From Bacteroidota bacterium (GTDB taxonomy: Bacteria > Bacteroidota > Bacteroidia > Bacteroidales > F082), in the NCBI GenBank assembly GCA_014382445.1, contig JACNJS010000063.1, positions 1 through 41,832 of the forward strand: a DNA stretch of 41,832 bases. The letters run 5' to 3'. The position numbers and the translations under genes are program-made. Shown here piece after piece: positions 27,951-38,461 of the stretch. The notes under the pieces were generated by a model that saw only the letters and a list, made by a program, of their open reading frames with translations, was not told where the DNA came from and ran no database searches. The stretch's first letter is position 1; every line of letters starts with the position of its first letter.

Positions 27951-28247
27951 TTATTTTTTAAATTTTCTTTTGTGTTTCTCGAGTTGTTTCTTTAATGCAC
28001 TAAGAGCCGTATCGGTGGCTTCTTCAAAAGTGCTGCTTTGTTTTTTAGCATAAAGGTCATAACCAGGAATTTGAATCCTGATTTCCGCAATCTTGTTCTC
28101 TTTGGTTTCCGCTTTATCTAACTTAAGCGTAATATCCGAACCAATTACCCCTTCATACAACCCAGAAAGTTTTCCTACTTTCTTTTCAATAAATTGCTCT
28201 AATTTATTGTCGGTCTTAAAATGAACTGCGTTGATGTTTACTTTCAT
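27951..28247 (-). CDS. hpf: Ribosome hibernation factor, short HPF/RaiA type
   Basis: A 98-residue beta-alpha-beta-beta-beta-alpha protein that binds the small-subunit decoding region in stationary phase. VNINAVHFKTDNKLEQFIEKKVGKL at the start and a basic C-terminal helix EEATDTALSALKKQLEKHKRK are typical. There is no long C-terminal dimerisation domain, so it is the short form. It starts three bases after the recombinase gene and is co-transcribed with it. Confidence 0.93.
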   Translation of the reverse strand: MKVNINAVHFKTDNKLEQFIEKKVGKLSGLYEGVIGSDITLKLDKAETKENKIAEIRIQIPGYDLYAKKQSSTFEEATDTALSALKKQLEKHKRKFKK

Positions 28248-28250
28248 ATA

Positions 28251-29147
28251 CTAACCTCCTTTATTTAATTTTGCCCTGGGATGGGCTTTACTATATACTT
28301 TTTTTAACTGTTCAATTGTATTGTGTGTATAAATTTGTGTTGCTGTTAAGTTTGAGTGCCCTAGAATTTCTTTAATAGTGTTAAGGTCGGCCCCATTGTT
28401 CAGCATATGAGTTGCGAATGAATGTCGAAGTAAGTGGGGGCTTTTTACCGATCCTGTTAAAGATGATAACTCCTTGTTAATAATACAATAAATTAGTTTG
28501 GGATATGCCTTTGCTCCTTTATTAGTAACAATAAGATAATCGTTAAGATTTCCAAATTGTTTTTCCTTATTGTTGATGTAGTTAATAATACTTTCTATCA
28601 GTTTTTGAGATAACGGTATAATTCGTTGCTTATTTCGTTTTCCGTGTACTTTTATTGTGTTGATGGAAAAATCAATTGATTTAACGGTAAGAGATACTAG
28701 CTCGCTTCTTCGCATCCCTGTTGAATATAATAATTCAACCACAAGCATGTTTCGTAATTTTGTGAATTCCTGTTCTTCAACATTGCTATCCAGAAACGTA
28801 TTTAGTTGCTCTTCGTTGAAATAAACAGGTAAGCGTTGAGGTGTGTTAACAGACACTATGTGTCGAGCAGGGTTTTCACTTAAAACCGATATCTTAATCA
28901 GATAATTATAGTATGACTTAAGGGTACTCATCTTTCGGTTTACTGACTTGCCGGATAAACCACTATCAATCATATACACAACCCATGAACGTATCATTTC
29001 CTGACTTGCATCAACAGGATTGTCAATCTCAAATTCGTGGTTAAGAAATGTTGTAAATAATGCAAGATCGGTTTTGTAGGCTTTCACGGTATGTGATGAA
29101 TACCTTTTTTCTATGGCGATATAATCTATAAAGCTATCTATTGTCAT
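28251..29147 (-). CDS. Tyrosine recombinase, XerC/XerD type
   Basis: A 298-residue recombinase. The N-terminal SAM-like core-binding domain (1-90) is followed by the catalytic domain with R146 (GMRRSEL), K170, H238-xx-R241 (HLLRHSFATHML), H264 (LGHSN) and the nucleophile Y273 (IYTH). Its length and its place between rpsU and hpf match the conserved Xer protein of Bacteroidota that resolves chromosome dimers. No neighbouring attachment sites or cargo suggest an integrase role. XerC versus XerD cannot be decided by eye. Confidence 0.92.
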   Translation of the reverse strand: MTIDSFIDYIAIEKRYSSHTVKAYKTDLALFTTFLNHEFEIDNPVDASQEMIRSWVVYMIDSGLSGKSVNRKMSTLKSYYNYLIKISVLSENPARHIVSVNTPQRLPVYFNEEQLNTFLDSNVEEQEFTKLRNMLVVELLYSTGMRRSELVSLTVKSIDFSINTIKVHGKRNKQRIIPLSQKLIESIINYINNKEKQFGNLNDYLIVTNKGAKAYPKLIYCIINKELSSLTGSVKSPHLLRHSFATHMLNNGADLNTIKEILGHSNLTATQIYTHNTIEQLKKVYSKAHPRAKLNKGG

Positions 29148-29245
29148 TCAATATAACAAAAAAAAGAAGAAACTCTGTTTTCAAAAGTACTAAAAAATAC
29201 TTCAAAAACCTAATTTCTTCTTAACTATTTCCCTTTATGGACTTA

Positions 29246-29440
29246 TTAGCCCATTTCAGTTTGACGAAGCCCCTGAATGTAAATCGCTTTGAGTTTCTGT
29301 TCTCTTTTAACCACTGATGGTTTTTCGAATTTTTGACGAGCGCGCAATTCTCTCAGTGCACCAGTTTTCTCAAATTTACGTTTGAATCTCTTCAGAGCCC
29401 TGTCGATATTCTCACCTTCTTTTACCGGAATGATGATCAT
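29246..29440 (-). CDS. rpsU: Ribosomal protein bS21
   Basis: A 64-residue protein starting MIIIPVKEGENIDRALKRFK, with the basic KRKFEKTGALRELRARQKF segment typical of bS21. A longer frame reaches back to 29521, but the promoter match at 29489-29516 lies inside it, so the ATG at 29440 is preferred. In some Bacteroidota, bS21 is linked to anti-Shine-Dalgarno sequestration; that is not testable here. It is first in the rpsU-xer-hpf unit. Confidence 0.93.
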   Translation of the reverse strand: MIIIPVKEGENIDRALKRFKRKFEKTGALRELRARQKFEKPSVVKREQKLKAIYIQGLRQTEMG

Positions 29441-29488
29441 ATTATACCTACTTTCTTTTGTTAAATTAATAATTAGTTTAAGGGACGG

Positions 29489-29516
29489 CAAAAGTACATA
29501 ATTTTTTATTAAACAA
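29489..29516 (-). promoter_or_regulatory. Promoter of rpsU-xer-hpf
   Basis: On the minus strand TACTTTTG (29496-29489) is a perfect TAnnTTTG box, with TTG at 29516-29514, 17 bases upstream; a second TTG lies six bases further. It predicts a leader of roughly 45 bases. Confidence 0.6.
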
Positions 29517-29660
29517 CACAAGTAAAAGGATTATTTTTTGTAAATGCTTTGGATAAAAAGGGGATTGGGGATAAGGGGATTAGGTATAAGGGTTGTATTT
29601 TTAATTTCGCATTGATGATACAAATTCATTTTCTTTTTCAAAACGGGATATATTCAAGGC

Positions 29661-30150: not shown

Positions 30151-31104
30151 CTATTTTTTTTCCAGTTCTTCGATTTTATCTCTCAGCTCTTTAATCCGGA
30201 ACTCTCTATTAATAAAAACTTTATTAAACCGTTCAAGCTCATCATTTTTATTCTCAAGCTGTTTATTTATTTCGAATAAATCATTTATTAATTTCTGGTT
30301 TTGCTGATTCAGTATAAATTTATCGATTGCATTATAAATGGCATATGGAAGTTGAACAAGATAATCGTTACGCTTTACAATATAATCATAAGCTCCAAGA
30401 TGAATTGATGCAACGGCATGTAACTCGTCGCCTTTTCCAGTAACAACAATGACTGGCAGTTTGATTTTTTTGACTTTCATCATCTTTAAAAATTCAAGTG
30501 CATTCATATCGTCCATGCGCAAATCGATAAGAATTAAATCGAATTCAGAGCCGCTTTGCAATAAATCAAACGCCTTGGTAGCGGTTTCAACACCTTGTAC
30601 TGTTATAGGTTTGGCATAATTCCTTAAATGTTCAATGGTTAAGTCAATGTCAATCTTACTTTTTTCGACGTATAAAACGCGACGAGAATTTGCACCCAAT
30701 CGGATAGAATTAAACTTTTTCGATTTAAATTCTTCTATAATTTGTTGCATTAAAGCAGGCAGAATTGTTATATAATTACCGGCTTTGCTAATGTACGATG
30801 CAGCACCTATTCTTAAAGCACTTATAACCAAATCTTCGTCACCACTGCCGGTAATCATAATCATGGGCACGCTCGGTAATACAAGAACTAATTCTTTTAA
30901 AATATCAATGCCATCAATATCGGGTAGTTTATTGTCGAGTAGTATTAAATCGTATTTATTTTGCCCAACCATTCGCAAACACTCAGCTCCTGTTCCTGCA
31001 ATTTCAATCGAAAATTCTTGCGCAAATTCCTGAAAATGATTTATTAACAAATCAACATCAACAGGGTTGTCTTCGAGATATAGAATTGAATATTTAGCAT
31101 CCAT
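30151..31104 (-). CDS. Double receiver-domain protein with C-terminal coiled coil
   Basis: A 317-residue protein. REC1 (about 5-125) has E11-D12 and phospho-acceptor D57 (LILLDNKLPDIDG). REC2 (about 142-262) keeps D194 (LILIDLRMDD), but its acidic pocket is E147-K148 rather than two acids, so its phosphorylation or metal binding may be altered. Residues 265-317 are a charged coiled coil with no output domain. It is the last gene of the stressosome/kinase operon, 8 bases after the single-REC gene. It probably acts as a phosphate sink or scaffold. The same REC pair architecture heads the kinase at 33009-34664. Confidence 0.88.
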   Translation of the reverse strand: MDAKYSILYLEDNPVDVDLLINHFQEFAQEFSIEIAGTGAECLRMVGQNKYDLILLDNKLPDIDGIDILKELVLVLPSVPMIMITGSGDEDLVISALRIGAASYISKAGNYITILPALMQQIIEEFKSKKFNSIRLGANSRRVLYVEKSKIDIDLTIEHLRNYAKPITVQGVETATKAFDLLQSGSEFDLILIDLRMDDMNALEFLKMMKVKKIKLPVIVVTGKGDELHAVASIHLGAYDYIVKRNDYLVQLPYAIYNAIDKFILNQQNQKLINDLFEINKQLENKNDELERFNKVFINREFRIKELRDKIEELEKK

Positions 31105-31112
31105 AATAGTAT

Positions 31113-31553
31113 TTATTTAAATGGTGATTTATTTGTCGTTAACCAAAAGCTTTTAATGTTGTTGGCAACTTCGATAAAAGCCCGGCTATCGACAGGTTTT
31201 ATTAAGTATGAATTAGCACCAATTTTATAGGCTCTGTCAATATCTTCATCGCCTGATGAAGTGGTTAAAATGATTACCGGTATTTTTTTCCATACCTCAT
31301 CATCGCGAATGTATTTTAATACATCTAAGCCATCCACTTTAGGAAGTTTCAAATCTAAGAGTACCAGGCAGGGGAAATTTAACATGCTATTATCGCGATG
31401 ATTTTCTATGTAAACTATAGCTTCTTCGCCATCGCGGCAAATATCGAAGATATTATCCAATTGAATTTCTTTAAATCCCTCAAGAGTCATGTCTAAATCC
31501 ATAGGATTATCTTCTACGATAAGAATGGGACGATTTGGTAAGTTTGAGTTCAT
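31113..31553 (-). CDS. Single-domain response regulator (Rcp1-like)
   Basis: A 146-residue stand-alone receiver: E14-D15 acidic pocket, phospho-acceptor D67 (LVLLDLKLPKVDG), switch T97/T98 and K119-P120. The extended loop before beta3 (YIENHRDNSMLNFP) resembles the Rcp1/CheY-like regulators that partner phytochrome and hybrid kinases. There is no output domain, so it most likely shuttles phosphate from the kinases just upstream. All key residues are present. Confidence 0.9.
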   Translation of the reverse strand: MNSNLPNRPILIVEDNPMDLDMTLEGFKEIQLDNIFDICRDGEEAIVYIENHRDNSMLNFPCLVLLDLKLPKVDGLDVLKYIRDDEVWKKIPVIILTTSSGDEDIDRAYKIGANSYLIKPVDSRAFIEVANNIKSFWLTTNKSPFK

Positions 31554-31571
31554 AATTATTTGTATTTTTCA

Positions 31572-31627
31572 TTGTAACTATTCAGCATGTGATAATAAAT
31601 TGTATTGTGCTCAATGTGAGTAATATA
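31572..31627. repeat. 56-bp 3' element, copy 2
   Basis: Near-copy of 10071-10126 (TTGTAACTATTCAGCATGTG...CTCAATGTGAGTAATATA). It lies directly after the in-frame-corrected stop of the histidine kinase (31630) and before the response regulator gene, so it is inside the operon transcript. CTCA/TGAG gives a small hairpin. Confidence 0.75.
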
Positions 31628-31629
31628 GT

Positions 31630-33004
31630 TTATTTAACCGGTAAGGTAAAAAAGAATGAAGCTCCTTTTCCGGGTTCCGATTCGGCCCATATCTTACCAT
31701 TCTGTTTTGCAATAATTTTTTTTTACAATTGCCAATCCTGCACCTGTACCTTCAAAATCTTCGTTACGAACCAGTCGGTGAAAAAGCTCGAACATACGGT
31801 TGTGATATTTCATATCGAAACCAATACCATTATCGGTAACTTTAAAAAATAATTCTGTGCCCCGAATTTCTGCAAAAATTGTTATTTCAGGATTATGAGT
31901 CTTTGACGAATACTTAAAGGCATTATCAACCAAATTAGAAATAATATGTATCAAACCATTTTCCCATGTTTTAATTATTATTCCGGTCACATTGAGTTTT
32001 AAATTAATCTCATTTTCTTCAATAATTTTTTGTCTTTGTCTGATAATATTTTCGAGGAGCAGTTCAATACTAACATCCTGTACCTGTACAGTTTCTGTTT
32101 CGAGTTTTGAATAACTCAATAAATCTTCGATAAGTGCATCGAGCTGTTTAGAGGCCACATGAATTTGATTTACACAAAAAACTCCTCTTTCGCTCAGGTT
32201 TTCAATGTGCTTTCTGAACAGTTCCTGCGCATATCCGGTTATTCCCCTGAGTGGTGCTTTCAAATCATGAGAAACAGTATAGTTGAAAGATTTTAATTCG
32301 GAATTTTTTTCATTCAACTGATTCATGGCATTTTTAAGATTTTTGTTTAAATTGTCAAGTTCGATATTTTTTTGAGCCATTTCGTTATTTAATACTACAA
32401 TACCGCTGTTAGTTTCGATTAACTCATTATTTACAACCTCCAACTTGCTATTGCTTTGGTTTAGCTCTTCTAAAACAGAAAGTAAATCTTTGTTTTGATT
32501 TTCCAATTCCGAAACAAGTGCATCTTTAAATGTAATTTTATCAGTTTTTATTTCTGCTTTGAGCTTGTTAAATGCCTCAGTACTTAGTTTATTGATAAGA
32601 GAAGTGTATTTTATCAGACGAACAGTCGTGCCTTTACCCAGTTCAGTATCAATATAAAACTCGTTCATCAGGCTTCGTGCTCCTTTTATACCAACTCCCA
32701 ATCCTGTGCGCGAAATATATTTCCCATCGAGTATTTTATTTAAATCTTTAATCCCCGGGCCCTCATCGACAGAAATTATTTCTATTCCACATTTATTGTT
32801 TTTTTCGATATAATTAAAACTAATTGTTCCTCTATTGGCATACTCGTAAATATTACGGGCAATTTCGGAAACTGATGTAGTAATTCTTACCTGATCAGTT
32901 GTGGAAAAGCCTAACTTATCGCAAATAAATCTACAGCTTTTACGAATTTCAACAAGATTCTCTTCGTTAAACACCTCAATAGTTAAAATATTTTCGCTTT
33001 CCAT
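31630..33004 (-). CDS. RsbT-like ATPase domain fused to histidine kinase (3' frameshift)
   Basis: Numbering from the ATG at 33004 (four bases after the preceding stop; an upstream ATG would overlap that gene). Residues 5-130 are an RsbT-like GHKL domain (SVSEIARNIYEYANRG, VDEGPGI, GLGVGIKGARSL). A long coiled coil follows (about 135-240), then HisKA with H246 (SHDLKAPLRG) and HATPase_c (N-box NLVDNAFKYSS, DNGIGF, GTGAGLAIV). The uncorrected frame ends at 31694. A run of nine A at 31716-31724 shifts the frame. With eight A it would continue KKIIAKQNGKIW...FFFTLPVK to a stop at 31630, the normal kinase C-terminus. The loss only affects the last strand and helix of the ATPase fold. Confidence 0.88.
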
Positions 33005-33008
33005 TTTG

Positions 33009-34664
33009 CTAACTTTTAGTTTCGACAGGCAATGTAATTGTAAACACAGAACCTTTACCGGGTTCTGAAACAAAGCTTAAATCCGCTTTTATAAGACTAA
33101 GTAATTCTTTCGATAAAATTAATCCTAAACCTGTACCCGGCTCATTATTCGTTCCTTTGTTTGATGTAAATTTATCTATTCTAAATATATTCTCCGATTC
33201 CGTTTTTGCCATGCCGATACCGTTATCAGTAACTTCAATATGTACTGATTTATTTATAATATTGGCTGATATTCTAACTGCTCCATCCGGGTGTGTAAAT
33301 TTAATGGCATTAGATATCAGGTTTCTAAGTGCGGTAAAAACAATATTTTCATCCATATCAATTTCAATAGTCTCAGGGCAAGATAATTCCAAGCTAATAT
33401 TTTTGTTTATTGCTGCCGGATTATACAGATTAATTATTTTAGTACACAAAGCATATATATTGACATTTTTATAATTTACAGTTACATTTCCCTTTTGAGT
33501 TTTACTCCATTCCAATAAATTCTGCAATAAATTATATACGTTTTGAGTAGTATTTCTTGCCAGGATTAAATGATTTTCGAGTGCAATCCTGTCGTAGGTT
33601 TTTATGTTTTGAATAATAATATCCAGTACAGCCTGAAGGCTTCCAAATGGGCCGCGCAAATCGTGTGCAAGCAATGAAAAAAATTGATCCTTTATTTGAT
33701 TGATATTTCTTAATTCTGCAGCTTGTTGTTTTAAAAGCTTTTCGGTGCTTTCGTACTCGTTTATTTCTTGATTTAAACGATTGGTAGTTTCAATAAGTCT
33801 ATTATCAAGTTTTCGCGACAATTCTGTTAAATCGTCCAGGTGTCTTTTATGAATATTTATATTTTGGAATCTAAAAAGCGCATTTTCAATCACATAAGGT
33901 AATTGCGATAGATACAAATCATTTTTTGTAATATAATCGAATGCACCCAGTTTTATTGAATCGATAACGAACTGTTCGCTGCCCTTACCGGTTACAATTA
34001 CAAATGGAATTTCAATGCCCATTTTATTTACGGTTTTCATTAAGTCCAGCGCAGTGGAATCTAATAATTGCAAATCGCATAAAACCAAGTCTATCGTATT
34101 TTCCTTTTTTAATAGTTTTATTGCCGCTGTGGCAGAGTTTACATCCGTTATTATAATATGCTTGGCATGCTCTTTAAAATGAGTAATCAGTAAATCAACA
34201 TCGTAATCGCTATCTTCCACATAAAGCACAGATACAGGCTGCTGTTTAGAGCTTGTCAATAAGTTAGCCGATTTATCAGTAGCATTACATAATTCCCTAA
34301 TTACAACAGGAAGCTCTTGCAAGTAGTCTCCTTTTTTTTGGATATAATGATTTGCACCTGATTTTAAGCTTTGAAGTATAAGGCTTTCATCGCCAAAACC
34401 TGTTAGCAAGATAATTGGGATATTATTTTTAGCAAGGCGAAGTTTTTTTATTATTTCAACCCCATCAATATCGGGTAATTTATAATCCAGTATAAGTATA
34501 TTGAACTCTTGCTCATCTAATAATTTAAAAACATCGTTTCCGGTTTCGACAATTGTAAGTTCAAATCCCTGCGTTTCTTCTTTAAAAAAAGTACGGGTTA
34601 AGTCAATATCCAATGGATTGTCTTCGGCATATAGAATTTTAATTGGTTTATTTATAAGATTCAT
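33009..34664 (-). CDS. REC-REC-histidine kinase
   Basis: A 551-residue soluble protein. REC1 (about 8-128) has D60 as phospho-acceptor with E14-D15. REC2 (about 145-265) has D197 with E150-D151. A coiled coil (270-320) leads to HisKA H334 (AHDLRGPFGS) and a complete HATPase_c (NLISNAIKFTHP, DNGIGM, GTGLGL). There are no membrane helices, so signals must come from protein partners, plausibly the stressosome encoded upstream. It is separated from the phosphatase gene by the transposase insertion and is four bases before the next kinase. Confidence 0.9.
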   Translation of the reverse strand: MNLINKPIKILYAEDNPLDIDLTRTFFKEETQGFELTIVETGNDVFKLLDEQEFNILILDYKLPDIDGVEIIKKLRLAKNNIPIILLTGFGDESLILQSLKSGANHYIQKKGDYLQELPVVIRELCNATDKSANLLTSSKQQPVSVLYVEDSDYDVDLLITHFKEHAKHIIITDVNSATAAIKLLKKENTIDLVLCDLQLLDSTALDLMKTVNKMGIEIPFVIVTGKGSEQFVIDSIKLGAFDYITKNDLYLSQLPYVIENALFRFQNINIHKRHLDDLTELSRKLDNRLIETTNRLNQEINEYESTEKLLKQQAAELRNINQIKDQFFSLLAHDLRGPFGSLQAVLDIIIQNIKTYDRIALENHLILARNTTQNVYNLLQNLLEWSKTQKGNVTVNYKNVNIYALCTKIINLYNPAAINKNISLELSCPETIEIDMDENIVFTALRNLISNAIKFTHPDGAVRISANIINKSVHIEVTDNGIGMAKTESENIFRIDKFTSNKGTNNEPGTGLGLILSKELLSLIKADLSFVSEPGKGSVFTITLPVETKS

Positions 34665-34726
34665 AACAGTTTTGTTAAATTATTGATTTTTGAGTTTCAT
34701 TAATATTTTCAATTGTTTATTGATGA

Positions 34727-34965
34727 ATGACATTTTTTTATATGTTTGGGCTAAAGCCCGATTTTTTGTTATTTATTTATTCAACGCCATAAATGGCGTT
34801 GCTAATTATTTTGTTTTTTATCTTTCAACGCCTAAATGGTCCCGCACGTGCGGGACTAATTATTTCGTTCTTTTATTTTCGATGCCATAAATGGTGCTGC
34901 TAATTATCTTGTTCTTTTATTTACAACGCCATAAATGGTTCAGCACGTGCGGGACTAATTATTTT
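34727..34965. repeat. REP-like palindrome array A
   Basis: A 239-bp array of short palindromes spaced 30-50 bases apart: GGGCTAAAGCCC, CAACGCCATAAATGGCGTTG (34782-34801), GTCCCGCACGTGCGGGAC (34839-34856), an imperfect GATGCCATAAATGGTGCTG, and an imperfect TCAGCACGTGCGGGAC. AATTATTTTGTTCTTTTATTT-type spacers separate them. The whole array is repeated almost base for base at 35479-35716. Confidence 0.9.
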
Positions 34966-35053
34966 GCATAACATCAGATTATCATTAGGCACGACATTTA
35001 TGTCGTGCACCAAATTCGATGAACACAAAACGGGCTTTAGCCCAAACCTCGAA
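34966..35053. repeat. Palindromes at the transposase 3' side
   Basis: Contains GCACGACATTTATGTCGTGC (perfect stem) and GGGCTTTAGCCC, between array A and the transposase stop. These are different palindromes from those in the arrays and may be the element's right-end recognition hairpins. Confidence 0.65.
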
Positions 35054-35485
35054 TTAATGTTTAACAATTTCAAATCCATAACGCTCAATAAATTTATCAT
35101 ATTCTTGTTGAAATGTAATCTTTTTATGATGTTCTTCCTGATTAGCAATGTACTGCCTAACGGTTTCTATTTTATCATCTCCAACTCCTACAGCCAAATA
35201 TTCATCTTGCCATTCAAATTTTTGTTTAATTAATTTATTCTTATTTATCCAATGTGATGATTCGCCCTTTATTAATTGTGCTGTTTTCCCTATGCTTAAA
35301 TCATCATTTAATGAAACAAGACAATGTACATGGTCTGAATATCCGTTTATAAAATCAATAAATATGTTTTTTCGTGCATTTTCACGAATATGATTAAATA
35401 CTTCAAACCTGATATCCGCAGATAATAAGGGTTTCCTGTTCTTGGTTGACCATACGTAATGGACGTAAACTTTTATGTATGACAT
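35054..35485 (-). CDS. REP-associated Y1 transposase (IS200/IS605 TnpA-like)
   Basis: A 143-residue HUH single-strand transposase. H52-V-H54 (DHVHCLVSL) binds the metal, and Y112 (VRQYIANQEEHH) with Q116 is the nucleophile helix. No TnpB is present. Flanking palindrome arrays mark it as a RAYT-type domesticated or REP-mobilising enzyme rather than a plain IS200. The ATG at 35485 lies inside the first bases of array B, so array and gene are joined. It sits in a stress-signalling operon on the same strand. The catalytic residues look intact. Confidence 0.9.
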   Translation of the reverse strand: MSYIKVYVHYVWSTKNRKPLLSADIRFEVFNHIRENARKNIFIDFINGYSDHVHCLVSLNDDLSIGKTAQLIKGESSHWINKNKLIKQKFEWQDEYLAVGVGDDKIETVRQYIANQEEHHKKITFQQEYDKFIERYGFEIVKH

Positions 35486-35716
35486 TTTTTTATATGTTTG
35501 GGCTAAAGCCCGATTTTTTGTTATTTATTTTTCAACGCCATAAATGGCGTTGCTAATTATTTTGTTTTTTATCTTTCAACGCCTAAATGGTCCCGCACGT
35601 GCGGGACTAATTATTTCGTTCTTTTATTTTCGATGCCATAAATGGTGCTGCTAATTATCTTGTTCTTTTATTTACAACGTCATAAATGGTTCCGCACGTG
35701 CGGGACTAATTATTTT
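35479..35716. repeat. REP-like palindrome array B
   Basis: A 238-bp copy of array A with only a few differences visible: one missing base in the first spacer, CAACGTCATAAATGG for CAACGCCATAAATGG, and TTCCGCACG for TTCAGCACG, which restores a perfect palindrome GTTCCGCACGTGCGGGAC-like arm. It ends at the stop codon of the phosphatase gene. Confidence 0.9.
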
Positions 35717-36739
35717 TTACTTTATAACCAATACAGTAGCATCATCGTTTTGCCGCGAAAACTGATCGAATACAATATGTGCAATTATCGCGGGATGTTT
35801 TGTATGTAAATCTTTAAAATCGGAGATATCCCAACGATTTGAAATTCCATCGCTTGTCATTAGTAAAACACTGCCCGGAACCCACTGATGTTCGTAAGCC
35901 CTTATATGATTTATTCTACCTCCCAATGAGCCATTCATTGTTAGTGGATGGACAGGAATAGGAGAATTAAAAACCCTTGCACTAATGTTCCCTATTCCGC
36001 CATAAATTAATTTATTCTGCCGTTTCGAAAGTCTTGCAATCGCAATTACAGCGCCCTGTGTTTGGATTAAAGCCAAGTGTAAATCATTCAGCAATGGCTC
36101 AATCTCTTCAGAATTGTTTTTTTCAAGATAATCAATAGCCGCTTGTGAGGCAATATTTGCTTCGTATCCATGGCCAATTCCATCGATTACTGAGGCACAA
36201 ATTTCGCCATCAGACTGAGTAAAAAATATACCATCGCCATTTTCTTCGAAACCGGGCATAGGGCGGGTAATACATCCTATTTTAAAATCGTTGTTTTTTA
36301 TTGAACTTTTTTCTTTTGTAAGCCATTTACGCGCAAAAATTACTGTAATAGGCTTAACACGTTTACTGTACAAATTTGCCGGTACCGAGAACAGATCAAA
36401 CTCATCGGATAATCTTTTAACAGCTCCCAGGCCTGTACCCATTGAAGCCGAAGTAGTAAATCCATCGCGCATGGTTACTTCAGTATTTTCAATCCCTGGT
36501 CCATAATCAATTGATACTATATCAAGCACTTTTTTATGATTGTAATTAAATGCGTTGACAACTATTTTTCCTTCTCCCGGGAATTTAACCAGATTATTTG
36601 CCAGCTCAGAAACAATAATGGATATTTCGCTCTGTGCCACATGATTAAAGCCAATATTTTTAGCAATATCAACAATAAATTGCTGAGATTCGTTAATCTG
36701 GTCGAAACCGGCAATCGGGTATGTACTATACAGTATCAA
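35717..36739 (-). CDS. RsbT-like ATPase fused to SpoIIE/PP2C phosphatase (RsbX/RsbU-like)
   Basis: A 340-residue two-domain protein. Residues 10-140 are a GHKL anti-sigma-type domain (VSELANNLVKF, DYGPGIENT, GTGLGAVKRL). Residues 155-340 are a PPM phosphatase with D169 (GDG), D186-G187 (VIDGIGHG), D297-G298 (TSDGIS) and N331-D332-D333. Single-domain RsbX in Bacillus dephosphorylates RsbR/RsbS to reset the stressosome, and a phosphatase directly after rsbT supports such a role. The gene overlaps rsbT by 14 bases. The ATPase domain retains most motifs, so one protein could both phosphorylate and dephosphorylate STAS partners. Confidence 0.9.
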   Translation of the reverse strand: MILYSTYPIAGFDQINESQQFIVDIAKNIGFNHVAQSEISIIVSELANNLVKFPGEGKIVVNAFNYNHKKVLDIVSIDYGPGIENTEVTMRDGFTTSASMGTGLGAVKRLSDEFDLFSVPANLYSKRVKPITVIFARKWLTKEKSSIKNNDFKIGCITRPMPGFEENGDGIFFTQSDGEICASVIDGIGHGYEANIASQAAIDYLEKNNSEEIEPLLNDLHLALIQTQGAVIAIARLSKRQNKLIYGGIGNISARVFNSPIPVHPLTMNGSLGGRINHIRAYEHQWVPGSVLLMTSDGISNRWDISDFKDLHTKHPAIIAHIVFDQFSRQNDDATVLVIK

Positions 36740-37139
36740 TTTTCACCCCCCTTAACCATTTAATTACAGTGATTTTTGTCCCCCTGTTTTTTTCTGTTTC
36801 AATAAAAAAATCATCGACCAGCCGTTTAGAACCGGGCAGGCCTTTGCCTAATCCTCCACCGGAAGTATAACCATCTTTTAGTGCCAATTCTATATTTTCA
36901 ATTCCTGGTCCATAATCAATAAATTCGATTTTAAGGCCAATATCGAATCCGTTTTTTACCTCTATCGTTATTACTTTACCTTTTCCGGCATAAAGTAATA
37001 TATTACGTACTAATTCGCTGGCGACGGTGGTAAGCTTGGTTTGATCAACTAAACCAAATCCCATTTCTTTAGCCCTATCTCGAATAAAATGCCTGGCTAA
37101 TACAATATCCTCATCGGATTTAATTTCATGTACTTCCAT
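36726..37139 (-). CDS. rsbT: RsbT-like serine/threonine kinase (stressosome switch)
   Basis: A 137-residue GHKL kinase. Motifs TVASELVRNILLYAGKGK, FIDYGPGIENIELALKDGY and GGGLGKGLPGSKRL are nearly those of Bacillus RsbT. In stressosomes it phosphorylates RsbS and RsbR and is then released to activate a downstream target. It starts two bases after rsbS and overlaps the phosphatase gene by 14 bases. Confidence 0.93.
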   Translation of the reverse strand: MEVHEIKSDEDIVLARHFIRDRAKEMGFGLVDQTKLTTVASELVRNILLYAGKGKVITIEVKNGFDIGLKIEFIDYGPGIENIELALKDGYTSGGGLGKGLPGSKRLVDDFFIETEKNRGTKITVIKWLRGVKIDTV

Positions 37140-37141
37140 TA

Positions 37142-37573
37142 TTAATCCAATTCATCAGATTCACTTTCCTGTGGCTCTTCATTAATTGCCTTATCAGTTT
37201 TGATGCTTTTAAAATATTCCGTATCGCTCTCAGATAATAATTCAATAGCATTTTCTAAATCGAGTGCTGTTCTAACATCTCCCAAATCGAGTCCAAGCTC
37301 AACCAGGGTAATGGCAACAGCGGGTGATATACCAACCAGCACTACCGTAGCATTCATTAAAGAAGCCATTTCGGCGGTATTCGATAACATGCGGCCTATA
37401 AACGAATCAACAATTTCGAGCGAAGAAATATCGATAATAACAGCATGCGAACCGTATTTCTGAATGTTAGTCAGAACATCATCCTGTAAGGCATTTGCGG
37501 CACGATCGTGTAATTCTGTTTGTATGGTAACAATAAGTGTATCGCCAAATTTTAGTATGGGTATTTTTTCCAT
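37142..37573 (-). CDS. rsbS: RsbS-like STAS-domain stressosome protein
   Basis: A 143-residue single STAS domain. The motif IIDISSLEIVDSFIGR places the phospho-acceptor Ser at residue 57, equivalent to Ser59 of Bacillus RsbS. VVLVGISPAVAITLVELG follows as the usual second conserved segment. It has about 25 extra acidic residues at the C-terminus (EEPQESESDELD). It holds RsbT in the resting stressosome. It is 21 bases after rsbR. Confidence 0.93.
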   Translation of the reverse strand: MEKIPILKFGDTLIVTIQTELHDRAANALQDDVLTNIQKYGSHAVIIDISSLEIVDSFIGRMLSNTAEMASLMNATVVLVGISPAVAITLVELGLDLGDVRTALDLENAIELLSESDTEYFKSIKTDKAINEEPQESESDELD

Positions 37574-37594
37574 AATTTTCGATTTAATATTACT

Positions 37595-38461
37595 TTACTT
37601 TCTGGTATCAATCGACTTTCCGAGTTTTTCTAAAGCATAGCGGATACCATCGGCCATGATTGCGCGTGTTGTAATACCTTTAAACTCAACTCCCATTTGC
37701 ACCATAGTTTGGGCTATTGGAGCGCTTATGCCTGTGATTACACTATCGGAACCCAATAATTTTATGGCACTTACGGTTTTCATTAAATGCTGTGCAACCA
37801 TAGTATCTACGGTAGGCACACCGGTAATGTCAATAATTGCTACTTTTGATTTTTGTTCAACAATTATTTCCAGTAATTTTTCCATTACTATTTGTGTTCT
37901 TGCACTATCGAGGGTTCCAATTAAAGGTACCGCTAGTATGCTATCCCATATTTGAATAATCGGGGTTGCCATTTCCATTATTTGCCTCGATTGCCTTGAA
38001 ACAACATCTTCGCGTGATTTTGAATAAACCTCGAAGGTATATAAACCCAATTTATCGATAACATCATTGAGCAATGTAAGTTCAGAAAGAAAAAGTTTTG
38101 GATCAGAACTTAATTCTTTCACTAAATAAGGTAAAGTAACTTCTTTTAAGGAGAATACAAAAGTTGCTGTTTCGGATGGTGAAAAACCCTTTAAAGCTCT
38201 GGATCTGCTAATATTTCCTAAAAAGGTACGTGCTTTATCGAAACTTTTTTGGTCCACATTTTCAGTTTTGCCAAGCGAAAGTGCTTCGATAAAAGCAATT
38301 AGAAATTCGCGCGATTCATTTTCAATTTGTTCAGCGCTAATCAGGTCGAGCCGCATTGATAAAGCGCCAAGCTGAGTTTTGACCCAGTTTTTGAGAATTT
38401 GTTCTTTATTGTCTTTAGTAACGCTATAAAGACTAAAAGAATCTGTTGATTTTGTTGCCAT
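37595..38461 (-). CDS. rsbR: RsbR-like stressosome sensor (RsbRD-type N-domain plus STAS)
   Basis: A 288-residue protein. Residues 20-155 form an all-helical N-domain resembling RsbRD_N, without recognisable haem or flavin ligands. A linker helix (160-185) leads to a STAS domain with T220 (IIDITGVPTVDT) and T252 (ISAPIAQT), which correspond to the two phosphorylated threonines of Bacillus RsbR. It is the only RsbR in the window, so the sensory turret may be of one kind or other paralogues may be elsewhere. It heads the operon, with a promoter match about 40 bases upstream. Confidence 0.92.
   Translation of the reverse strand: MATKSTDSFSLYSVTKDNKEQILKNWVKTQLGALSMRLDLISAEQIENESREFLIAFIEALSLGKTENVDQKSFDKARTFLGNISRSRALKGFSPSETATFVFSLKEVTLPYLVKELSSDPKLFLSELTLLNDVIDKLGLYTFEVYSKSREDVVSRQSRQIMEMATPIIQIWDSILAVPLIGTLDSARTQIVMEKLLEIIVEQKSKVAIIDITGVPTVDTMVAQHLMKTVSAIKLLGSDSVITGISAPIAQTMVQMGVEFKGITTRAIMADGIRYALEKLGKSIDTRK

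What the first reader, a model, noticed from the sequence alone, without database searches (positions are those of the whole stretch)
30151..38461. Stressosome operon wired to a multi-step phosphorelay
RsbR-RsbS-RsbT and an ATPase-phosphatase fusion are followed on the same strand by two soluble histidine kinases, a lone REC and a REC-REC protein. Neither a sigma factor nor a classic anti-sigma/anti-anti-sigma partner is seen. The output of RsbT may thus be a phosphorelay rather than a sigma factor. RST modules near two-component genes are known in other bacteria; this exact set with five REC domains and no DNA-binding output is unusual.
Basis: partly seen in the sequence, partly recalled or inferred. 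Interest (0 to 1): 0.75.

Follow-up and report, generated by a model that had tools for sequence, protein, structure and literature searches.

The report
Stressosome operon with a stressosome-type kinase
This bacterium carries genes for a stress-sensing protein shell (a stressosome) next to two-component signalling genes, and the key histidine kinase begins with a copy of the stressosome's own switch protein, which suggests how the shell may pass its signal on without a sigma factor.

Summary
The operon is real: rsbR, rsbS, rsbT, an ATPase-PP2C fusion (X), a REC-REC kinase (HK1), a second kinase (HK2), a lone REC and a REC-REC protein, all on the minus strand. The exact eight-gene order recurs in a genome of another class of the phylum (39-65% identity). 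HK2 starts with an RsbT-like GHKL domain joined by a long helix to its HisKA domain. An IS200-type transposase splits X from HK1. HK2 is frameshifted near its end.

Of 103 other distinct RSTX loci mapped, 78 pair a GHKL-PP2C X with a next frame that begins with an RsbT-like domain; 14 pair a plain PP2C X with a RsbU_N protein; none pairs GHKL-X with RsbU_N. In 395 genomes no RsbT-like kinase was found away from RsbT (E 1e-10). In 26 of 79 the RsbT-like domain has lost its ATP motif, which suggests docking.

Best reading: a stressosome whose output is two-component signalling, coupled by the kinase's own RsbT-like domain. Stressosome-kinase operons are in print; I found no description of this domain. 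"Multi-step phosphorelay" is unproven: no Hpt and no DNA-binding protein lies in the operon.

The parts
37595..38461 (-). rsbR: RsbRD_N sensor domain + STAS (288 aa)
   Evidence: PF14361 E 3e-22, PF01740 E 3.3e-13; model matches Listeria RsbR 7b0u over its length, E 2.8e-12; the only other match to it in the genome at E 1e-3 is rsbS
37142..37573 (-). rsbS: single STAS domain (143 aa)
   Evidence: B. subtilis RsbS 6jhk E 1.2e-29; the Ser in the phosphosite motif is kept in the alignment
36726..37139 (-). rsbT: GHKL switch kinase (137 aa)
   Evidence: PF02518/PF13581; N-box, DxGxG and GxGxG residues invariant in 14 of 14 aligned RsbTs
35717..36739 (-). X: N-terminal RsbT-like GHKL domain + PP2C/SpoIIE phosphatase (340 aa), overlaps rsbT by 14 bp
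   Evidence: PF07228 E 1.1e-6, PF02518 E 1.8e-5; GHKL and PP2C motif residues invariant in 15 of 15 aligned
35472..35716 (.). direct repeat, copy 1, upstream of the transposase gene
   Evidence: 246-bp alignment at 98% to 34720-34965, made of ~100-bp units; no other full-length copy found in the genome
35054..35485 (-). IS200/IS605-type Y1 transposase inserted between X and HK1
   Evidence: PF01797 E 4.5e-26; NF033573 above cut-off; absent at this place in G724, where X and HK1 are 10 bp apart
34720..34965 (.). direct repeat, copy 2, downstream of the transposase gene
33009..34664 (-). HK1: REC-REC-HisKA-HATPase kinase (551 aa)
   Evidence: two PF00072 stretches and PF02518; H-box AHDLRGPF; orthologue in G724 39% identical, with PF00512
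31694..33004 (-). HK2: RsbT-like GHKL domain, long helix, HisKA, HATPase (436 aa as read, C-terminus truncated)
   Evidence: PF13581 E 2.7e-11, PF00512, PF02518; hhalign to RsbT 99.9%, E 7.6e-36; model: GHKL fold then one helix 163-269; orthologue in G724 52% identical
31716..31724 (-). run of nine A where the HK2 frame is lost (error, mutation or slippage site)
31113..31553 (-). lone REC (146 aa), no output domain
   Evidence: PF00072 E 2e-19; orthologue in G724 51% identical
30151..31104 (-). REC-REC protein with a charged C-terminal tail (317 aa), no DNA-binding domain found
   Evidence: two PF00072 stretches; second REC has EK in place of ED; in G724 the phospho-Asp of that REC is Asn

Best explanation
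A stressosome (RsbR-RsbS shell, RsbT switch kinase, X phosphatase) whose output is two-component signalling. The coupling element is the RsbT-like GHKL domain at the N-terminus of HK2. I infer that this domain docks on the RsbR/RsbS STAS surface, as RsbT does, so that HK2 is held (or held inactive) on the shell. Stress makes RsbT phosphorylate RsbR and RsbS, which changes or releases the docked kinase; the signal passes through the long helix from the GHKL domain to the HisKA dimer. X, which also carries an RsbT-like domain, would dock at the same surface and reset it by dephosphorylation. HK2 then phosphorylates the RECs: the lone REC, the REC-REC protein and, as a possible second tier, the N-terminal RECs of HK1. 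Shown: gene content, order conservation, domain identity, motif state, and the company of RsbT-like kinases with RsbT genes. Inferred: docking, direction of control and all phosphotransfers.
For: RsbR and RsbS match solved stressosome proteins, with the phosphosite Ser/Thr positions kept (their role is recalled). HK2's N-domain is a homologue of RsbT. In a domain tree RsbT, X-GHKL and kinase N-domains are split from the kinases' own ATPase domains with support 100; the 22 kinase N-domains form one group with support 73 and the 22 X domains one with 100. The model shows the GHKL domain (block pLDDT 79-95) running into one helix, residues 163-269, ahead of the HisKA bundle. In 395 genomes 9 of 9 RsbT-like kinases lie near RsbT. 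Among 103 distinct loci, GHKL-X with an RsbT-like next frame occurs 78 times, plain X with RsbU_N 14 times, GHKL-X with RsbU_N 0 times. DxGxG is kept in 103 of 103 RsbTs but lost in 26 of 79 kinase-fused domains, as expected of a docking module. The eight-gene order recurs in G724.
Against: No binding or phosphotransfer data exist. The two coupling classes split into two lineages on the RsbS+RsbT tree (support 96), so the 78/14 split may be one or two events, not many. Of the 103 loci, 70 were chosen by likeness to the window's kind of RsbT, and the orphan-test profile was built from kinases found beside RsbT. Ten of 103 loci have a next frame with neither domain, so the domain is not indispensable. 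HK2 of this genome is frameshifted and a transposon splits the operon, so this copy may be damaged. Degenerate domains could be dimerisation modules rather than docks.
Confidence: 0.55

Rival explanations
1. RsbT, released from the shell, binds and switches the kinase in trans, as it does with RsbU: it contacts HK2's RsbT-like domain (GHKL heterodimer) or its helix, and the kinase never touches the shell.
For: RsbT activates RsbU by ordering a linker helix, and RsbU_N kinases occur in stressosome operons (PMC12143880, passages). Loci with RsbU_N kinases here fit that plan by domain content. Some kinases beside GHKL-type X lack the RsbT-like domain but share the linker motif ETNxG.
Against: No RsbU_N in HK1 or HK2. 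A domain homologous to RsbT is an odd receptor for RsbT. RsbU_N and GHKL-type X never occur together in the 103 loci mapped.
Confidence: 0.27
2. HK2's RsbT-like domain is a second, active Ser/Thr kinase for RsbS/RsbR, so HK2 feeds signals into the stressosome instead of reading it.
For: The window domain keeps N-box, DxGxG and GxGxG.
Against: 26 of 79 kinase-fused domains have lost the DxGxG motif while the operon stays.
Confidence: 0.1
3. The operon is decaying or a chance neighbourhood: the transposon and the HK2 frameshift show that the kinase half no longer works with the stressosome.
For: IS200-type element with repeats between X and HK1; HK2 frameshift.
Against: The other frames are open; the same eight-gene order is intact in G724; the frame change lies in a run of nine A, a usual place for sequence error (recalled).
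Confidence: 0.08

Closest known systems
RSTX modules followed by HisKA/REC phosphorelays, described for globin-RsbR stressosomes (Heinz et al. 2022, PMC9237108; section 10 read whole)
   Same: RsbR-S-T-X order; downstream two-component proteins; no sigma factor needed; authors propose that RsbT may act on the downstream kinase.
   Different: The section names RsbU_N as coupling domain and says most downstream proteins lack it; an RsbT-like domain in the kinase or in X is not mentioned there, and X is called a single-domain PP2C. Figure 3 could not be seen.
Vibrio vulnificus stressosome with the VvD1-VvD2 two-component system (PMC9237108, PMC10014275; passages)
   Same: RSTX plus a two-component pair with the same transcription kinetics.
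   Different: VvD1 has a PAS domain and the pair is linked to c-di-GMP; its authors report no positive VvRsbT-VvD1 interaction; here the kinase carries an RsbT-like domain and no c-di-GMP enzyme was found in the operon.
Moorella thermoacetica stressosome with diguanylate cyclase MtG, and RsbU_N histidine kinases (as cited in PMC12143880, passages)
   Same: Stressosome output other than a sigma factor; signal carried by a linker helix to a dimeric effector.
   Different: [quoted passage not shown] here it has an RsbT-like domain.
Bacillus subtilis RsbRST-RsbU-RsbV-RsbW-SigB cascade
   Same: R, S, T and an RsbX-like phosphatase.
   Different: No RsbU, RsbV or RsbW in the operon, no SigB-type sigma factor over cut-off and no stand-alone RsbW-like frame in the genome.

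Membership tests
RsbRST(X) stressosome | RsbR: N-terminal sensor domain + C-terminal STAS with phosphorylatable Thr | tested here: met
   PF14361 + PF01740; fold match to Listeria RsbR; both Thr positions align with Listeria RsbR (their role is recalled)
RsbRST(X) stressosome | RsbS: single STAS with phosphorylatable Ser | tested here: met
   E 1.2e-29 to B. subtilis RsbS, Ser aligned (its role is recalled)
RsbRST(X) stressosome | RsbT: stand-alone GHKL kinase with intact ATP motifs | tested here: met
RsbRST(X) stressosome | RsbX-type PP2C phosphatase | tested here: met
   PF07228; PP2C motif residues invariant in 15 of 15 aligned, with an extra N-terminal GHKL domain
RsbRST(X) stressosome | Assembly into a large RsbR-RsbS shell that binds RsbT | not testable with these tools
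   needs purified proteins
SigB partner-switching cascade | RsbU/RsbV/RsbW/SigB present | tested here: not met
   none in the operon; no SigB-family match over its cut-off and no stand-alone RsbW-like frame but RsbT in the genome; RsbU and RsbV not sought genome-wide
RsbU_N-coupled stressosome kinases | RsbU_N domain (PF08673) at the kinase N-terminus | tested here: not met
   no PF08673 match in HK1 or HK2; present over the cut-off in L172, L207, L211 and just under it in L174
Multi-step His-Asp-His-Asp phosphorelay | Hpt or second phospho-His between two REC steps in the operon | tested here: not met
   no Hpt in the operon; 3 Hpt elsewhere in the genome, two in frames of 116 and 118 aa; HK1 with N-terminal RECs could be a second tier (inference)
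Multi-step His-Asp-His-Asp phosphorelay | Actual phosphotransfer between the parts | not testable with these tools
   needs biochemical assay

The most novel reading that the evidence does not exclude
There is a second, widespread way to wire a stressosome. RsbT, the phosphatase X and the output histidine kinase all carry homologous RsbT-type GHKL domains and compete for one docking surface on the RsbR/RsbS shell, so the shell directly controls a histidine kinase. In many lineages the kinase's copy has become a pseudo-kinase dock.
Probability: 0.42. Interest if true: 0.77.

Novelty: new variant of a known kind. Interest (0 to 1): 0.58.

Why it matters
How stressosomes signal in bacteria without SigB is an open question; the published survey that I read found no coupling domain in most downstream proteins it considered (PMC9237108). 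The RsbT-like kinase domain gives a concrete, testable candidate in Bacteroidota, Acidobacteria and others, and the pseudo-kinase cases predict that binding rather than catalysis does the work. It would make the stressosome a scaffold that controls two-component kinases directly.

Tried and rejected
Considered and rejected. (1) Sigma-type output: no candidate in the operon, none over cut-off in the genome. The first genome search for HATPase_c_2 did not list RsbT itself, so it was not used for absence; one search was. (2) RsbU_N coupling: absent. (3) c-di-GMP output: no GGDEF/EAL match in the operon. (4) Chance neighbourhood: rejected by G724. (5) The P-value of the 2x2 table is not used as evidence, because the two classes are two lineages. 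(6) The regexes for the second glycine box and for X under-count, so only DxGxG in RsbT and the kinases is quoted, recounted. (7) A sister relation of the window's operon to Acidobacteria: searches printed supports after re-rooting, which moved some values to wrong nodes. Recounted without re-rooting, that grouping has support 33 only and is dropped. The same recount gives 96, not 100, for the RsbU_N split and 100, not 21, for the split of the kinases' own ATPase domains.

Led nowhere: promoter-like sites were at chance level (40 against 41.8) and terminator-like sites little above it (8 against 5.3, sd 2.5). Foldseek of the HK2 model listed kinase cores in the 50 rows shown of 415, not the RsbT-like domain on its own. 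Sequence search of that domain against the PDB gave SpoIIAB weakly (E 5e-4). Paper searches that might show an RsbT-like domain in kinases gave no description in the listings or passages seen; subscription papers, including Pane-Farre 2005 and 2017, were not read and are known only as cited.
Full report
OBSERVATION. Pfam gives: RsbR (RsbRD_N + STAS), RsbS (STAS), RsbT (GHKL), X (GHKL + SpoIIE/PP2C), HK1 (REC-REC + HATPase), HK2 (HATPase_c_2 + HisKA + HATPase), lone REC, REC-REC. HK1's HisKA did not pass E 0.01, but its H-box is present and the orthologue in G724 matches PF00512. Intergenic gaps are 21, 2 and -14 bp, then the transposon, then 4, 140 and 8 bp. The highest 19-residue hydropathy means are 2.18 (RsbS) and 1.83 (REC-REC protein), 1.3 or less in both kinases. 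The five REC domains are confirmed. The second REC of the REC-REC protein is partly degenerate here and has lost its phospho-Asp in G724.

WHAT WAS MISSED. (a) HK2's first 135 residues are an RsbT-like GHKL domain: 34% identical to the window's RsbT, PF13581 E 2.7e-11, and profile-profile probability 99.9%, E 7.6e-36, between kinase N-domains and RsbTs. The model has this domain at block pLDDT 79-95, then one helix from 163 to 269 into the kinase core. (b) A Y1 transposase of the IS200 type lies between X and HK1, flanked by a 246-bp direct repeat at 98% identity; no other full-length copy was found in the genome. (c) HK2's frame is lost in a run of nine A; the usual C-terminal motif follows in another frame and is intact in G724.

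CONSERVATION OF THE ORDER. G724, a 3.30-Mb single-contig genome of another class of the phylum, has R-S-T-X-HK1-HK2-REC-RECREC in the same order and strand, without the transposon, plus a ninth gene (REC-REC-PAS-HisKA). Identities are 53, 65, 61, 42, 39, 52, 51 and 41%. In the other 102 distinct loci mapped I saw no HK1-like gene between X and an RsbT-like kinase.

WIDER SURVEY. RsbT was sought in 149 genomes of the family (10 strong, own included; the other 33 matches are weak), 393 of the order (5, own included), 395 of the phylum (18, of which two are weak with no other module gene seen nearby) and 294 of G724's class (22). In named genomes 239 stretches encode relatives and the best 80 were kept. 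I mapped 128 loci with window-derived domain queries. Sixteen had no detected X or next frame and were set aside. Nine were duplicates, leaving 103, of which 70 are from the named set. In 78 of 103, X has an N-terminal RsbT-like domain and the next frame begins with an RsbT-like domain. In 14, X is a plain PP2C and the next frame has RsbU_N, by a small profile built from four of them; Pfam run on those four puts three over its cut-off and one just under. In 7, X has the GHKL domain and the next frame has neither; this includes G724, where the second kinase has the RsbT-like domain. In 3, X is plain and the next frame has neither, and in 1, X is plain and the next frame is RsbT-like. No locus has GHKL-X with RsbU_N. 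Of the 79 RsbT-like frames 76 also show a kinase core; the other three are short frames (L037, L058, L061). Eleven of the 14 RsbU_N frames are followed by a response regulator of about 210-230 aa; the three tested have a GerE DNA-binding domain. The named loci are biased towards the window's kind, because they were found with RsbTs of that kind.

TREE. On RsbS+RsbT (102 loci and the window), the window and G724 pair with support 100, while five loci of the window's own genus form a separate group with support 96. The window's operon is thus not its genus's usual one; horizontal transfer or an old second copy would explain it (inference). A grouping with four Acidobacteria loci has support 33 only. 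The 14 RsbU_N loci and L220 are split from all others with support 96, so the two coupling classes are two lineages rather than many independent events.

ORPHAN TEST. A profile of kinase N-domains (23 rows, all from loci beside RsbT) was run over 395 genomes of the phylum. In 17 there is a match at E 1e-10 or better. Nine hold a long frame with the domain and all nine have RsbT within about 3 kb; the other eight show short frames only. The search scored at most nine candidates per genome, so weak cases may be missed.

CATALYTIC STATE. DxGxG is kept in 103 of 103 RsbTs and in 53 of 79 kinase-fused domains; 26 of 79 lack it, among them Chitinophaga, Flavobacterium and Larkinella loci. The window and G724 keep it. 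X keeps GHKL and PP2C motif residues in 15 of 15 aligned. In a tree of 94 domains, RsbT, X and kinase N-domains are split from the kinases' own ATPase domains with support 100; RsbT itself does not form one group.

MECHANISM. Homology to RsbT, close company with RsbT and RsbS, and loss of the ATP site without loss of the domain fit a docking role on the stressosome. X shares the domain, which suggests a common surface for kinase, phosphatase and output kinase. This is inference; no binding has been tested. The RsbR model matches Listeria RsbR (E 2.8e-12) and, weakly (E 4e-3 to 5e-3), 3zta and the AfGcHK globin sensor, so a globin-like sensor domain is likely; its ligand is unknown. No second RsbR was found in the genome.

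OUTPUT. No DNA-binding domain, Hpt or c-di-GMP enzyme was found in the operon. Three Hpt domains lie elsewhere in the genome, two in short frames, so a relay could be closed in trans, but that is speculation. HK1, with RECs at its N-terminus, could be driven by HK2.

WHAT IS KNOWN. RSTX operons with downstream HisKA/REC phosphorelays, RsbU_N kinases and c-di-GMP enzymes are described (PMC9237108 section 10 read whole, and passages; PMC12143880, PMC10014275 and PMC4976288 passages). PMC9237108 notes that most downstream proteins considered lack RsbU_N and suggests RsbT could phosphorylate the kinase. I saw no mention of an RsbT-like domain in the kinase or X in the section, passages and listings seen; figures, supplements and subscription papers were not seen.

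VERDICT. Observation confirmed with additions; interpretation partly supported. New variant of a known kind.

Noticed in passing
window 34720-35716: Direct repeats made of ~100-bp units with hairpins that look like terminators on the + strand flank an IS200-type transposase; both copies reach to the start region of the transposase gene.
   Followed up: partly
L171-L175, L206, L207, L209, L211-L214, L219, L221: A second RSTX kind in other classes of the phylum: plain PP2C X and a RsbU_N protein (PAS-HisKA_3 kinase in the four scanned), usually followed by a response regulator; the three regulators scanned have a GerE DNA-binding domain.
   Followed up: partly
L218:4891-7637: RSTX followed by a SpoIIE + HATPase_c_2 protein and a STAS gene: looks like a partner-switching output in the same phylum.
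   Followed up: no
L062, L075, L078-L081, L090, L108, L109: Variovorax, Ramlibacter and Pseudacidovorax RSTX loci followed by kinase genes without a detected RsbT-like domain; the four checked (L080, L081, L108, L109) carry the linker motif ETNxG that the RsbT-like kinases of the window's family also have.
   Followed up: partly
L056, L059, L064, L074: Acidobacteria stressosome operons have RsbTs among the closest to the window's in the named set (48-53%), and three of the four have an RsbT-like kinase of about 450 aa; their grouping with the window has support 33 only.
   Followed up: partly
window 27951-29521: Downstream of the operon lie genes that look like a ribosomal S21 protein, a tyrosine recombinase and a hibernation-promoting factor (names recalled from the translations, no search made).
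   Followed up: no
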